From the NCBI GenBank assembly GCA_902793325.1, contig CADBCY010000017.1:1-64000 (forward strand): a DNA stretch of 64,000 bases. Direction: 5' to 3'. This document shows positions 161 to 7,732 of this stretch, one piece after another. This stretch comes from an uncultured Eubacteriales bacterium (GTDB lineage: Bacteria; Bacillota; Clostridia; Christensenellales; Aristaeellaceae). The notes beneath the pieces are model-generated. The model saw only the letters and a program-made list of their open reading frames with translations, did no database searches and had not been told where the DNA came from. A program made the translations under genes and the position numbers. Numbering within the stretch: position 1 is the stretch's first letter; each line of letters begins with the position of its first letter.

Positions 161-3100
161 ATGAGACAGAGCGGCGTGTTGCTGCACATCACCTCGCTGC
201 CCTCCCGGGGCGGCGTTGGCACCCTGGGCCGGGCGGCCTACGAGTTCGTCGACTTCGTCAGGGCGTCGGGCATGAGCATCTGGCAGATGCTGCCCATCGG
301 TCCCACGGGGTATGCAGAGTCTCCCTACCAGAGCGTATCCACCTATGCGGGCAATCCGCTGATGATCGACTTCGACCTGCTGGAAGCGCAGGGGATCCTG
401 CCCGCGGGCAGCTACGAACCGCTGGCCCCGCAGCCCGAAGTGGACTTCGAGGCCGTGAAGGCGCAGAACACGGCGCTGCTGCGCAAGGCGTTCGAATTCT
501 CCCGCGACAGGACAAGGGAGGCGGTCGCCGCCTTCGAGGAAAGCCACCCCTGGGTGCGCGACTACGGGCTGTTCTGCGCCATCAAGGCCAGCTTCGGCAG
601 CGTGTCCTGGATGAAGTGGCCGGACAACGACATCCGCCTGCGCAAGCCCAAGGCCCTGGCGAAGTACGAAAAGAAGCTGGCCGCGGAGGTCGACTTCCAC
701 GTGTTCTGCCAGTACCTGTTCTTCGATCAGTGGGAAAAGCTGCACGACTACGCCCGGGAGCGCGGCGTCCGGCTGATGGGCGACATGCCCATCTATGTGG
801 CGGAGGACTCCTGCGACGTGTGGCTGAACCCGGACATGTTCGAGCTGGACGAGGACTGCAAGCCCATCCGCATCGCGGGCGTGCCGCCGGACTACTTCCA
901 GAAGGACGGCCAGCGCTGGGGCAACCCGCTGTACGCCTGGAAGAACCACGAGGCCGACGGCTACCGCTGGTGGATCGGCCGGCTGCGCGCGCTGGGGCAG
1001 ATGTTCGACATCCTGCGCATCGACCACTTCATCGGCTTCGCCAACTTCTACGCCATCCCGGCGGAGGAGATGACCGCACGCAACGGCAAGTACGAGCTCG
1101 GGCCGGGCCGCAGGCTGTTCCGAAAGCTCCGCAAGGAGCTGCCGGAGCTCAACATCGTGGCGGAGGACCTGGGCGTGGTCAGCAAGCGCGTGAAGAACCT
1201 GCTGGCCTACTGCGGCTACCCGGGGATGAAGGTGATGCAGTTCGCCTTCGACAGCGACGAGAACCCCGACCTGCCGAAGAACCACGTCGAAAACTGCATC
1301 GTGTACACCGGCACGCACGACAACGACACCACCCTGGGCTGGTGGGAAGGCGCCTCGGAGGCCACCAAGGCCCGCGCGCGCAAGCTCCTGGGCATGGCGG
1401 AGGACAGCGAGGACATCATGCCCGCCATCCTGAAGGCCAGCTTCGAGTCCGTGGCGGATACCGTCATCGTGCCCATGCAGGACTGGCTCGGCCTGGGCGG
1501 CGAGGCGCGCATGAACTACCCCGGCACCGTGGGCGGCAACTGGCTGTGGCGCATGGACGCGACGCCCGACTACGAAGCCATCGCCCGCCGCATCCGCCGG
1601 CTGAACCGCCTGTCCCGACGCGGCGCGCTGAAGAACGCCACGGCGGAGGAACTGATCGCCCGCGCGGAGGACATCTGCCTGTGCGACAGCCACCTGACGC
1701 TGCGCGAGGCCGACGCCGTCCAGCTGCACGACGCCATCGCGAAGGCCGCCATGCTGGACATCGCGCCGCAGTGGGCGGACGACTTCGGCGCGCGCCTGGA
1801 GAACCGGCGCGCGGTGTACCTGTCCGCGGAGTACCTGGTGGGCCGCCTGGTGTACAACAACCTGTACGCCATGGGCGTGCTGGAGGACGTGAAGGCGGGG
1901 CTGGCCGAGCGCGGCGTGGACCTGGCCGCGCTGGAGGACATCGAGGACGCCGCGCTGGGCAACGGCGGGCTGGGCCGGCTGGCCGCCTGCTTCCTGGACA
2001 GCGCCGCCACCCACGACATCCCCCTGGACGGCTACGGCCTGCGCTATAAGTACGGCCTGTTCAAGCAGTCCTTTGAGGACTTCGCCCAGAAGGAGGAGCC
2101 GGACGACTGGACCCGCATCGGCGACCCGTGGAGCATCCGCCGCGACGACCTGACCGTGGTGGTGCCCATGAAGGGCCTGGCGGTGTACGCCGTGCCCTAC
2201 GACATGCCGGTGATCGGCTACGGCAGGCGGAGCATCGGCACGCTGCGCCTGTGGCAGTGCGAGAGCACCCACGAGTTCGACTTCGACCTGTTCAACGGCC
2301 AGGACTACGCTGCGGCGTCGAAGGACAAGAACACCGCCGAGGACATCACCAAGCTGCTCTACCCGAACGACAGCATGAAGGCGGGCAAGCTGCTGCGGCT
2401 GCGCCAGCAGTACGTGCTGTGCAGCGCGTCGCTGCAGGACATGCTGCTGGCCTACATGGAGCGCCCGGAATACGAGGCCGACGGCTTCGCGGGCTTTGCC
2501 GACCTGCACGCCGTACAACTGAACGACACCCACCCCACCATGGCCATCCCGGAGCTGATCCGGCTGATGATGGCGTGGGAGGACATGCCGTTCAACGAGG
2601 CGTTCGACATCGCGCGGCGCACCTTCCGCTACACCAACCACACCGTCATGCGCGAGGCGCTCGAGTGCTGGGATCTCAGGCTGATGAACGAGCTCTCCCC
2701 CGAGCTGGTGAAGATCATCCGGCGCATCCAGGCGAAGCTGGCGCGCGACCTCAGGAAGGCGAAGGTGGCGGACCCCGCGCCGCTGAACATCATCGAGGGC
2801 GGCCGGGTGCACATGGCGAACCTGGCGGTGTACGGCTCGTCGTTCACGAACGGCGTGGCGGCCATCCACAGCCAGATCCTGAAGGACGACGTGTTCCGGG
2901 AGTGGTACGCGCTCTACCCCGAGCGCTTCAACAACAAGACCAACGGCATCACCCAGCGCCGCTGGCTGGGCCTGTGCAACCCCGAGCTGACGGCCCTGCT
3001 GAAGGAGAAGCTGGGCGGCGACGGTTTCCTCACCGACCTCTACGCGCTCAAGGCCCTGGAGCCCATGATCGACGACGACCTGGCGAAGGCGTTCATCGAG

Positions 3101-4078
3101 GTCAAGCGGACGAAGAAGCGCCAGTTGGCGGCGCGCATCCTGGAGAACGAGGGCGTGGAGCTCCCCGAGCACTTCGTGTTCGACGTGCAGGTGAAGCGCC
3201 TCCACGAGTACAAGCGCCAGTTGCTGAACGCGCTGTCCATACTGGACATCTACTACGGCCTGAAGGACGGCACGCTCGACGACTTCCCCGCCACGGCGTT
3301 CATCTTCGGCGCGAAGTCGGCCCCCGGCTACGCGCGCGCCAAGGCGGTCATACGCTTCATCAACCGCATCGCCGCGCTGGTGAACGCCGACCCGGACACC
3401 AACGACCGGCTGCGCGTGGTGTTCGTGCAGAACTACAACTGCTCCTACGCGGAGCACATCATCCCGGCGGCGGACATCTCCGAGCAGATCTCGCCCGCGG
3501 GCACCGAGGCCAGCGGCACCGGCAACATGAAGCTGATGCTCAACGGCGCGGTCACGCTGGGCACCTACGACGGCGCGAACGTCGAAATCTTCCGCGAGGC
3601 GGGCATCGAGAACAACTTCGTGTTCGGCGCGACGGTGGAGGAGCTGAACGCCATCCGCGAAACCTACGATCCCATGGAGCTCTACGACGCCAATCCCCGC
3701 CTGGCCCGGGTCGTCGACACCCTGGGCGACGGCACCTTCGAGCCCGCGCCGGAGCCGCTGCCCGCGGCCGCCGGGGACGACGACGAGGCCGGGGATGAAG
3801 CCGAGCCCAAGGCCAGCCCCCTGGATCCCCGGCTGCGCGAGGGCGACCTGGCGGAGCTGCGGCAGTCGCTGCTGCTGGGCGCGAGCTGGCACCGTCCGGA
3901 CCACTACTTCCTGCTGAAGGACTACGAATCCTACCTGGCCGCGAAGCTGAAGGCTATCCGCGCCACCCGGGACGAGCTGTCCTTCGCGAAGATGGCCCTC
4001 CACAACATCGCGGGCGCGGGCAAGTTCTCCAGCGACCGCACGATCGAAGAATACTGGAACGAGCTCTGGGCGAAGTGA
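161..4078 (+). CDS. 4-alpha-glucanotransferase / glycogen phosphorylase fusion
   Basis: A 1305-residue cytoplasmic bifunctional alpha-glucan enzyme. Residues 1 to about 505 are a GH77 amylomaltase (MalQ): LRIDHF carries the nucleophile (D288), VAEDLG the acid/base (E335) and THDNDT the third carboxylate. After a short linker, about 520 to 1305 is a GT35 phosphorylase with YLSAEYLVGR, GNGGLGRLA and the PLP-lysine segment GTGNMKLMLNG (K1124). The first half disproportionates malto-oligosaccharides and the second releases glucose-1-phosphate. One continuous frame without an internal start supports a true fusion. The phosphorylase half has a short N-terminus and an acidic Ala/Asp/Glu insert near residue 1205-1225. 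AGGAG lies 9 nt before the ATG. A separate glgP lies at 19.9-22.3 kb. Confidence 0.93.
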   Translation: MRQSGVLLHITSLPSRGGVGTLGRAAYEFVDFVRASGMSIWQMLPIGPTGYAESPYQSVSTYAGNPLMIDFDLLEAQGILPAGSYEPLAPQPEVDFEAVKAQNTALLRKAFEFSRDRTREAVAAFEESHPWVRDYGLFCAIKASFGSVSWMKWPDNDIRLRKPKALAKYEKKLAAEVDFHVFCQYLFFDQWEKLHDYARERGVRLMGDMPIYVAEDSCDVWLNPDMFELDEDCKPIRIAGVPPDYFQKDGQRWGNPLYAWKNHEADGYRWWIGRLRALGQMFDILRIDHFIGFANFYAIPAEEMTARNGKYELGPGRRLFRKLRKELPELNIVAEDLGVVSKRVKNLLAYCGYPGMKVMQFAFDSDENPDLPKNHVENCIVYTGTHDNDTTLGWWEGASEATKARARKLLGMAEDSEDIMPAILKASFESVADTVIVPMQDWLGLGGEARMNYPGTVGGNWLWRMDATPDYEAIARRIRRLNRLSRRGALKNATAEELIARAEDICLCDSHLTLREADAVQLHDAIAKAAMLDIAPQWADDFGARLENRRAVYLSAEYLVGRLVYNNLYAMGVLEDVKAGLAERGVDLAALEDIEDAALGNGGLGRLAACFLDSAATHDIPLDGYGLRYKYGLFKQSFEDFAQKEEPDDWTRIGDPWSIRRDDLTVVVPMKGLAVYAVPYDMPVIGYGRRSIGTLRLWQCESTHEFDFDLFNGQDYAAASKDKNTAEDITKLLYPNDSMKAGKLLRLRQQYVLCSASLQDMLLAYMERPEYEADGFAGFADLHAVQLNDTHPTMAIPELIRLMMAWEDMPFNEAFDIARRTFRYTNHTVMREALECWDLRLMNELSPELVKIIRRIQAKLARDLRKAKVADPAPLNIIEGGRVHMANLAVYGSSFTNGVAAIHSQILKDDVFREWYALYPERFNNKTNGITQRRWLGLCNPELTALLKEKLGGDGFLTDLYALKALEPMIDDDLAKAFIEVKRTKKRQLAARILENEGVELPEHFVFDVQVKRLHEYKRQLLNALSILDIYYGLKDGTLDDFPATAFIFGAKSAPGYARAKAVIRFINRIAALVNADPDTNDRLRVVFVQNYNCSYAEHIIPAADISEQISPAGTEASGTGNMKLMLNGAVTLGTYDGANVEIFREAGIENNFVFGATVEELNAIRETYDPMELYDANPRLARVVDTLGDGTFEPAPEPLPAAAGDDDEAGDEAEPKASPLDPRLREGDLAELRQSLLLGASWHRPDHYFLLKDYESYLAAKLKAIRATRDELSFAKMALHNIAGAGKFSSDRTIEEYWNELWAK

Positions 4079-6050: not shown

Positions 6051-6284
6051 ATCCAAACAGACCGCGTTTGAGGAAAGCCGCGGTCGCGATCGTCCAAAGA
6101 GAGCCGGTGGCGGGTGAAAACCGGCGGCGGGCGCGACGCTGCCTCCACTTTCCGAGCGTTCCGGCGACGAGCCGGAGGGGCGCGCCCCGTACAGCGCCGA
6201 AAGCGGCGAACCGTGTTCGCAAGCTGGGTGGCACCGCGGAGCACCTCCGTCCCAGATGTGTGGGACAGGAGGTATTTTGTTTTT
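6051..6284 (+). promoter_or_regulatory. T-box riboswitch upstream of serS
   Basis: The 5' leader carries an AGAGAG segment followed by a CCGG-closed stem (about 6096-6130), a stem III-like GCGAAC/GTTCGC hairpin (6206-6220) and the T-box core GGGTGGCACCGCGG at 6226-6239, which pairs with the tRNA acceptor end. The terminator hairpin follows: ACCTCCGTCCCA (6243-6254) pairs with its mirror ending at 6273, then TTTTGTTTTT. Uncharged tRNA-Ser should stabilise the antiterminator and raise serS expression. I could not assign the specifier codon with certainty. Confidence 0.92.
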
Positions 6285-6320: not shown

Positions 6321-7544
6321 ATGATCGACATCAATCTCATCCGCACCAATCCCGACCTGGTTCGGGAGAACATCAAGAAGAAGTTCCAGGACGCCAAGCT
6401 CCCGTTGGTGGACGAGGTGCTGGAGTTCGACCGCCTGAACCGCGAGGCCATCCAGCGCGCGGACTACCTGCGCTCCCAGCGCAACAAGATCTCCAAGCAG
6501 ATCGGCGCGCTGATGGGCCAGGGCAAGAAGGACGAGGCCGAGGCCGCCAAGCAGCAGGTCAAGGACATGCAGGACGAGCTGGCCGCGATCGAGCAGAAGG
6601 AGGAGGACTACGCCGAGGAGATCCGCAAGCGCATGCTGGTGATCCCCAACATCATCGACGCCTCCGTGCCCATCGGCAAGGACGACAGCGAGAACGTGGA
6701 AAACGAGCGCTTCGGCGAGCCCGTGGTGCCCGAGTGGGAGGTTCCCTACCACGTGGACATCATGGAGCGCCTGAACGGCATCGACCTGGACAGCGCCCGC
6801 CGCACCTCCGGCAACGGCTTCTATTACCTGAAGGGCGACATCGCCCGGCTGCACAGCGCGATCCTGTCCTACGCCCGCGACTTCATGATCGACCACGGCT
6901 TCACCTACTACGTGCCGCCCTTCATGATCCACGGCAACGTCGTGACCGGCGTGATGAGCTTTGCCGAGATGGAGAACATGATGTACAAGATCGAGGGCGA
7001 GGACCTGTACCTGATCGGCACCAGCGAGCACAGCATGATCGGCAAGTTCATCGACCAGATGCAGGTGGGCGCCCACGGCATCGAGGAGCGGGGCGTGTAC
7101 CGCATCCACCAGTTCGAAAAGCAGGAGATGGTGGTGGTCTGCAAGCCCGAGGACAGCATGAAGTGGTACAATAAGATGTGGCAGCTGACCGTGGAGTTCT
7201 TCCGCTCCATGGACATCCCGGTGCGCACCCTGGAGTGCTGCTCCGGCGACCTGGCCGACCTGAAGGTGAAGAGCTGCGACGTGGAGGCCTGGAGCCCCCG
7301 GCAGCAGAAGTACTTCGAGGTGGGCAGCTGCTCCAACCTGGGCGACGCCCAGGCCCGCAGGCTCAAGATCCGCGTGAAGGGCGCGGACGGCAGGAAGTAC
7401 CTGCCTCACACCCTGAACAACACCGTGGTGGCCCCGCCCCGCATGCTGATCGCCTTCCTGGAGAACAACCTCCAGCCGGACGGCAGCATCCGCATCCCCG
7501 AGGCCCTCAGGGTGTACATGGGCGGCAAGACCCAGATCGGCTGA
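6321..7544 (+). CDS. serS: seryl-tRNA synthetase, apparently lacking motif 2
   Basis: 407 residues from ATG 6321, preceded by GAGGGGG; the open frame upstream to 6114 is the T-box. Residues 1-110 form the tRNA-binding coiled-coil arm. The class II core includes GTSEHSMIGKF (233-243), GVYRIHQFEKQEM (258 on), SCSNLGDAQARR and a motif 3 region with TLNNTVVAPPRM. Between residues 247 and 250 the sequence passes straight from KFIDQM to GAHGIEERG. Relatives I know have about 20 residues there, including SYSPCFRKE, the fRxE of motif 2 that binds ATP. The shortfall from a usual length near 427 equals that segment. The frame is intact, so this is an in-frame deletion, an assembly error or a non-functional enzyme. 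Confidence 0.93.
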   Translation: MIDINLIRTNPDLVRENIKKKFQDAKLPLVDEVLEFDRLNREAIQRADYLRSQRNKISKQIGALMGQGKKDEAEAAKQQVKDMQDELAAIEQKEEDYAEEIRKRMLVIPNIIDASVPIGKDDSENVENERFGEPVVPEWEVPYHVDIMERLNGIDLDSARRTSGNGFYYLKGDIARLHSAILSYARDFMIDHGFTYYVPPFMIHGNVVTGVMSFAEMENMMYKIEGEDLYLIGTSEHSMIGKFIDQMQVGAHGIEERGVYRIHQFEKQEMVVVCKPEDSMKWYNKMWQLTVEFFRSMDIPVRTLECCSGDLADLKVKSCDVEAWSPRQQKYFEVGSCSNLGDAQARRLKIRVKGADGRKYLPHTLNNTVVAPPRMLIAFLENNLQPDGSIRIPEALRVYMGGKTQIG

Positions 7545-7603
7545 TCGACGCTCTGAAAAGCCCCCGGAACCGCACGGTTCCGGGGGCTTTTCAGAGCGTC
7601 GAT
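7544..7603. terminator. perfect 60-bp palindromic terminator after serS
   Basis: Two 29-nt arms (7544-7572 and 7575-7603) are exact reverse complements around a 2-nt CA centre. The first base is the last base of the serS stop codon. The core is a GC-rich stem flanked by AAAAG/CTTTT, so U-rich tracts are produced on both strands and termination should work in both directions. Confidence 0.8.
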
Positions 7604-7616
7604 AAAGGCCGCAAAC

Positions 7617-7732
7617 GCGGAGATTCCCTGAAAGACACCGCTGACGCGGAGGGAATCTCCGCTTGCTGCGTCAGGCCGCCCTGCGGATTTGGTCACTTAC
7701 GATTTGGTAAGCTCCCGCATCCGCAGGACGGC
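7617..7732. repeat. cluster of overlapping hairpins in the serS / LRR convergent gap
   Basis: Three stems lie in about 115 bp: GCGGAGATTCCCT (7617-7629) with its complement at 7650-7662; a competing stem, CTGACGCGGAG (7641-7651) with CTCCGC and GCGTCAG (7657-7673); and a 14-bp near-perfect stem (7675-7688 with 7719-7732, one mismatch). The first two cannot form together. No ORF is credible here. Confidence 0.55.

What the first reader, a model, noticed from the sequence alone, without database searches (positions are those of the whole stretch)
7017..7100. SerRS with an apparent in-frame deletion of class II motif 2
The protein runs from GTSEHSMIGKFIDQM directly into VGAHGIEERGVYRIHQF. SerRS of this subgroup, as I recall it, has about 20 residues here including SYSPCFRKE, the fRxE motif 2 whose arginine binds ATP. 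The length (407 versus about 427) fits loss of exactly that block, while the frame, flanks and T-box are intact. An essential enzyme without motif 2 should be dead, so this is an error, a decayed copy backed by a second serS, or an unusual enzyme.
Basis: partly seen in the sequence, partly recalled or inferred. Interest (0 to 1): 0.75.

Follow-up and report, generated by a model that had tools for sequence, protein, structure and literature searches.

The report
Gap in serS, likely assembly error
The only seryl-tRNA synthetase gene found in this assembled bacterial genome lacks 19 amino acids of its ATP-binding core that every close relative compared keeps, and because other assemblies of related bacteria break at the same spot, the gap is likely an assembly mistake, not a new kind of enzyme.

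Summary
Observation confirmed, slightly refined. serS (window 6321-7544, 407 aa) lacks 57 bp (19 residues, with the fRxE of class II motif 2) against 27 of 27 full-length relatives aligned; the join is blunt at 7062|7063. It is the only SerRS found in the 95%-complete assembly. No other carrier was seen: 119 of 119 listed database relatives and 80 of 80 kept named loci have the motif.

Three things point to an assembly mis-join. (1) Apart from the junction codon the protein has no private change at conserved positions, so neither decay nor compensation. (2) The place is a recurrent breakpoint elsewhere: 6 of 16 contig ends located inside serS of relatives lie within 15 nt of the missing block, and one more relative has N gaps around it. 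(3) The genome's own ProRS is cut at its motif 2, its contigs overlapping by 59 bp.

No reads were available, so a real, recent, probably lethal deletion is not excluded. A working motif-2-less SerRS is very unlikely. Low interest.

The parts
6321..7544 (+). serS, 407 aa, the only SerRS gene found in the assembly; lacks 19 residues of the class II core
7062..7063 (+). blunt junction; 57 bp present in relatives are absent between these two bases
7019..7062 (+). left flank, 44 of 44 nt identical to congener G026; contig G014:C100 is identical to the window over the 121 nt up to 7062 and stops 1 nt beyond
7063..7102 (+). right flank, 90% identical to congener G026; contig G003:C96 starts 8 nt right of the right edge
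7020..7034 (+). TSEHS loop (residues 234-238), retained
7413..7466 (+). LNNTVVAPPRMLIAFLEN (residues 365-382), motif 3 region with its arginine R374, retained
   Evidence: motif name recalled
6058..6257 (+). T-box leader (sub-gathering match, 51.5 bits against a gathering score of 93); specifier codon not determined
7544..7603 (+). long inverted repeat overlapping the stop codon, terminator-like
   Evidence: stretch matches its own reverse complement, 96.7% over 60 nt; role inferred

Best explanation
The sequence shows a blunt, in-frame 57-bp gap over motif 2 in the only serS found in the assembly, and it is likely a local assembly error: the assembler most probably joined the two conserved flanks of this block and dropped the strain-variable stretch between them. 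Shown: the gap, its absence from every relative compared, the lack of decay, the single copy, and the recurrence of contig ends at this spot in related assemblies. Inferred: that co-occurring related species made a fork in the assembly graph here, and that the living organism has a full-length, ordinary SerRS behind its T-box leader.
For: No relative compared shares the gap: 27 of 27 aligned full-length relatives have the 57 nt; of the best 120 proteins listed (of 7,998 scored), 119 of the 119 other than the query have the motif (118 by pattern, P0067 as SSSPCFRKE), and so do 80 of the 80 named loci kept (of 583). Only 1 window-private change at columns where at least 20 of 23 congeners agree, and that one is the junction codon; the 23 congeners have 0-6. 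The same position breaks other assemblies: G014:C100 ends ...GACCAGATGCT, 1 nt past the left edge; G003:C96 starts 8 nt past the right edge; G179, G184 and G143 are split inside or beside the block; G033 has N runs of 72 and 129 around an island that ends 4 nt right of the right edge, each run 68 longer than the distance in G026, so they are scaffold gaps and not masked sequence. 6 of 16 contig ends lie within 15 nt of the block against 1.1 expected if uniform (P 4e-4; 1.5 and 0.003 if only 900 nt were detectable); G184's two contigs overlap by exactly 55 nt there. The window's flank shares exact runs of up to 121 nt with congeners. The own genome's ProRS is split at its motif 2, two contigs overlapping by 59 nt. 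PMC7111523 (passages read) reports that MAGs carry local assembly errors giving incorrect protein genes, and that overlaps of contig ends often equal the largest k-mer size or one less.
Against: No reads could be inspected. The join is exactly in frame (1 in 3 by chance) and has no N run. Nothing else like it was seen in 85 orthologous ORF pairs (30,769 aligned residues) from a sample of this assembly, so it is not generally error-ridden. A k-mer graph should need a junction k-mer from somewhere, and no shared bases link the two edges; a 27-nt, 70% direct repeat lies on the two sides of the junction, 6990-7016 and 7080-7106, but not at the edges. N- and C-terminal SerRS fragments in the protein database show no clear pile-up of ends at this residue, though starts there are dominated by internal Met codons.
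Confidence: 0.85

Rival explanations
1. The deletion is real in some DNA molecules: a very recent, predicted lethal or near-lethal allele from a minority of cells (or a library chimera) that the assembler took as consensus while the population mostly carries the intact gene.
For: Blunt, in frame, no N run; no time for decay; no shared bases at the edges that would favour a mis-join.
Against: Would not explain why contig ends of other assemblies fall at the same place.
Confidence: 0.09
2. A real decayed serS backed by another SerRS that lies in the unassembled part of the genome.
For: The assembly is 95.06% complete, so about 5% is unseen; some genera of the family carry a SerRS only about 30% identical to this one, so a second type exists nearby.
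Against: PF02403 and the protein itself each find one locus in the genome; the other PF00587 places have no PF02403. No decay outside the junction. The T-box is still recognisable.
Confidence: 0.04
3. An unusual but active SerRS that works without motif 2.
For: Single copy, open frame, TSE loop and motif 3 arginine kept.
Against: Motif 2 carries one of the two arginines that grip the adenosine phosphate in class II enzymes (PMC5919687, passages read). Every relative checked keeps it, and there are no compensating changes at conserved columns. TIGR00414 gives 352 bits in two pieces, against 404.7 bits in one for the intact relative P0002. An AlphaFold2 comparison was uninformative (mean pLDDT 57.0 against 56.2 for an intact control).
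Confidence: 0.02

Closest known systems
Bacterial seryl-tRNA synthetase (TIGR00414 serS)
   Same: N-terminal domain PF02403, class II core PF00587, TSE loop, motif 3 arginine, T-box leader
   Different: 19 residues with fRxE motif 2 missing; PF00587 match begins only at profile position 53 (position 8 in the intact relative P0002)
Local assembly errors in metagenome-assembled genomes (PMC7111523)
   Same: A gene altered at a point where assembly was uncertain; contig ends with k-mer-sized overlaps in the same genome and at the same spot in a relative
   Different: Lack of read support, the defining sign, could not be checked here

Membership tests
Bacterial SerRS (TIGR00414) | Score above the curated cut-off | tested here: met
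   352 bits against 301.65, but in two stretches; the intact relative scores 404.7 in one
Bacterial SerRS (TIGR00414) | N-terminal Seryl_tRNA_N domain | tested here: met
   PF02403, 89.9 bits
Bacterial SerRS (TIGR00414) | Class II motif 2 (fRxE) | tested here: not met
   absent as assembled; present in 119 of 119 listed relatives
Bacterial SerRS (TIGR00414) | TxE loop and motif 3 arginine | tested here: met
   T234 S235 E236 and R374 are in invariant columns of 26 aligned sequences; motif names recalled
Bacterial SerRS (TIGR00414) | Charges tRNA-Ser | not testable with these tools
   needs an assay
Local assembly error | No read supports the join | not testable with these tools
   no reads available
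Local assembly error | Join lies where assemblies fork or break | tested here: met
   6 of 16 contig ends within 15 nt of the block; N gaps around it in G033
Decayed gene | Accumulated private changes, stops or frameshifts | tested here: not met
   1 private change at conserved columns, the junction codon itself; no stops

The most novel reading that the evidence does not exclude
A living bacterium charges all its serine tRNA with a single SerRS that has lost the motif 2 strand and its ATP-gripping arginine.
Probability: 0.02. Interest if true: 0.9.

Novelty: not a real feature. Interest (0 to 1): 0.1.

Why it matters
As biology, little: the organism most likely has an ordinary SerRS. As a caution, it matters somewhat: a catalytic motif of an essential gene can go missing in frame from a good-quality assembly with no stop, frameshift or N run, and conserved catalytic cores shared between related species look like places where k-mer assemblies break. 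If the gap were real and the enzyme active, it would overturn the view that motif 2 is indispensable.

Tried and rejected
Second SerRS in the genome: none found. The other PF00587 places are a ThrRS (C17:16726), the two pieces of a ProRS (C52, C63), both named by eye from their sequence, and two places at C10 and C8 that were not identified.

Block displaced elsewhere in the genome: no convincing copy.

Deletion by recombination between repeats at the edges: no shared bases at the two edges in the 6 congeners printed; one search searched window 6950-7200 only.

Assembly generally full of such gaps: not seen. In 85 non-overlapping ORF pairs, 4 gaps of 8 or more residues were found and only serS has flanks at least 90% identical (480,834 bases of this assembly, i.e. 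C17 plus the first 20 kb of 20 contigs, against 1,218,965 bases of G026; stop-to-stop ORFs, so a few pairs may be false frames).

Chimeric contig, by gene order: useless, because no gene order around serS is shared with the 20 congener stretches fetched.

Hotspot in database protein fragments: not clear (the 120 listed of 3,447 C-terminal hits and the 120 listed of 6,585 N-terminal hits; 5 and 20 rows with more than 12 unaligned residues were left out of the tallies).

Structure prediction: both models poor.

Literature: searches returned no paper on a motif-2-less SerRS among the rows listed (12 of 15 and 8 of 215; titles and abstract starts seen); none of the 8 holds 'lacking motif 2' or 'deletion of motif 2'.

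Limits of the contig-end count: the 16 ends come from every row with an open frame under 400 aa at high identity. One search did not list all matches, genomes with a single weak match (e.g. G090, G176, G186) were not opened, and ends near either end of the gene are harder to see. G033 (N runs), G079 (a 2-base N run near reference nt 858) and the divergent G038 are outside the 16.

Full report
What is there. The window is bases 1-64000 of an 80,834-base contig (G000:C17) in an assembly of 3.23 Mb in 67 contigs, 95.06% complete. serS runs 6321-7544 on the + strand, 407 aa. The protein passes from ...MIGKFIDQM through one Q to VGAHGIEERG.... Against 27 full-length relatives it has one 57-nt gap in 27 of 27 (the partial copies L003 and L006 were left out). 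A 141-nt stretch of congener G026 matches 7019-7062 (100%) and 7063-7102 (90%) with its middle 57 nt missing, so the join is blunt. The lost residues (LTEDELPQTLTSYSPCFRK in G026) include the fRxE arginine of class II motif 2; in class II enzymes motif 2 holds the first of the two arginines that grip adenosine phosphate (PMC5919687, passages read).

Copy number. One Seryl_tRNA_N domain and one SerRS match exist in the assembly. PF00587 gives six places: this gene, a ThrRS, two pieces of a ProRS (named by eye), and two not identified. PF02403 finds one locus only, so none of the others has the SerRS N domain.

Who shares it. In one search, 56 of 60 genomes (own included) have a match, 26 of 28 of the genus, 139 of 150 drawn from the family. 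The sets overlap. Among listed rows only the own genome aligns over 1-407 at high identity; one search cut its list at the weak end, where a high-identity carrier would not stand. Some distant SerRS (about 33% identity) align in one piece, G041 and G059, and their matched stretches are longer than the query's. Of the 119 other proteins listed, 119 keep the motif (118 by pattern, P0067 as SSSPCFRKE), and 80 of the 80 named loci kept do. The query's own protein cluster has one member on one contig.

Decay or adaptation. Against 23 full-length congeners, the window protein has one private residue at columns where at least 20 others agree, and it is the junction codon; the others have 0-6. Pairwise dN is below half of dS in all 23 comparisons on both sides of the gap (one method, no tree; for L005 and L007 only the first 300 nt right of the gap). 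So the gene looks like a normal serS from which a block was cut a moment ago.

Why an assembly cause is favoured. Contig ends and gaps of other assemblies fall at the same place. G014:C100 ends ...GACCAGATGCT, 1 nt past the left edge; G003:C96 begins 8 nt past the right edge. G179's two contigs end at reference nt 771 and start at 785, inside the block (743-799). G184's end at 838 and start at 784 with a 55-nt exact overlap. G143's end at 859 and start at 813 with a 47-nt overlap. G033 has N runs of 72 and 129 around an island of 128 nt that ends 4 nt right of the right edge; in G026 the same distances are 4 and 61 nt, so these are scaffold gaps and not masked letters. Of 16 contig ends located inside serS in 12 assemblies, 6 lie within 15 nt of the block (1.1 expected under uniformity, P 4e-4; 1.5 expected and P 0.003 if only 900 nt are detectable) and 15 lie in nt 600-980. 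The ends in one genome are not independent: 5 of 12 genomes have an end in the narrow zone. So the broad conserved core is the hotspot, and the block sits in it. The DNA on both sides is highly conserved across congeners (exact runs with the window up to 121 nt), while the block starts with variable codons. That is a natural fork for a k-mer assembler when related species share a sample (inference). The own assembly shows the same signature in ProRS, cut at its motif 2 (FRDE, motif recalled) with a 59-nt overlap. PMC7111523 (passages read) says that overlaps at scaffold ends often equal the largest k-mer size or one less, and that uncorrected local assembly errors put incorrect protein genes into databases. 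PMC8172020 (passages read) says k-mer graphs can contain paths that match no real genome.

What stands against it. The join is in frame and without N. No shared bases at the edges explain it. The rest of the sampled assembly is clean: in 85 ORF pairs, serS is the only gap of 8 or more residues with flanks at least 90% identical. Database fragments do not show a clear pile-up at this residue. How exactly an assembler drops the block without an N run is not shown. Reads are the only proof, and I had none. Hence 0.85, not more.

Mechanism committed to. The organism most likely has an ordinary SerRS of about 426 aa behind a T-box leader, and the record carries a mis-joined copy. A real recent allele is the main rival (0.09).

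Noticed in passing
window 7591-7720: An interspersed repeat of about 130 bp lies just downstream of serS; 7 further copies of 98-130 nt (78-97% identical) were found in 480,834 bases sampled of this genome, two of them in one stretch (L157) and one at the very start of contig C6. Possible palindromic repeat family that breaks contigs.
   Followed up: partly
G000:C52:9449-9507 and C63:1-59: ProRS (named by eye) is split over two contigs at its own motif 2, sharing an exact 59-nt overlap.
   Followed up: yes
window 161-4078: One 1305-aa ORF joins a 4-alpha-glucanotransferase (PF02446) to a carbohydrate phosphorylase (PF00343).
   Followed up: partly
20 congener stretches around serS (L125-L144): No gene order around serS is shared with this contig; near the site only serS itself, with the leader in some, aligns.
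   Followed up: partly
family-level genomes, e.g. G028, G032: Some genera of the family carry a SerRS only about 31% identical to this one while others carry one 70-91% identical, which suggests replacement of serS between lineages.
   Followed up: no
G005 (96% complete), G012 (67% complete): No SerRS match at all in these two congener assemblies.
   Followed up: no
P0121, P0122 (database proteins): Two fragment proteins look mis-joined: P0121 repeats the SerRS C-terminal part, and P0122 has a C-terminal stretch placed directly before TSYSPCFRKE, i.e. another odd join at motif 2.
   Followed up: partly
G003:C43: The SerRS copy on this contig has an in-frame TGA that the overlapping contig C96 does not have.
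   Followed up: partly
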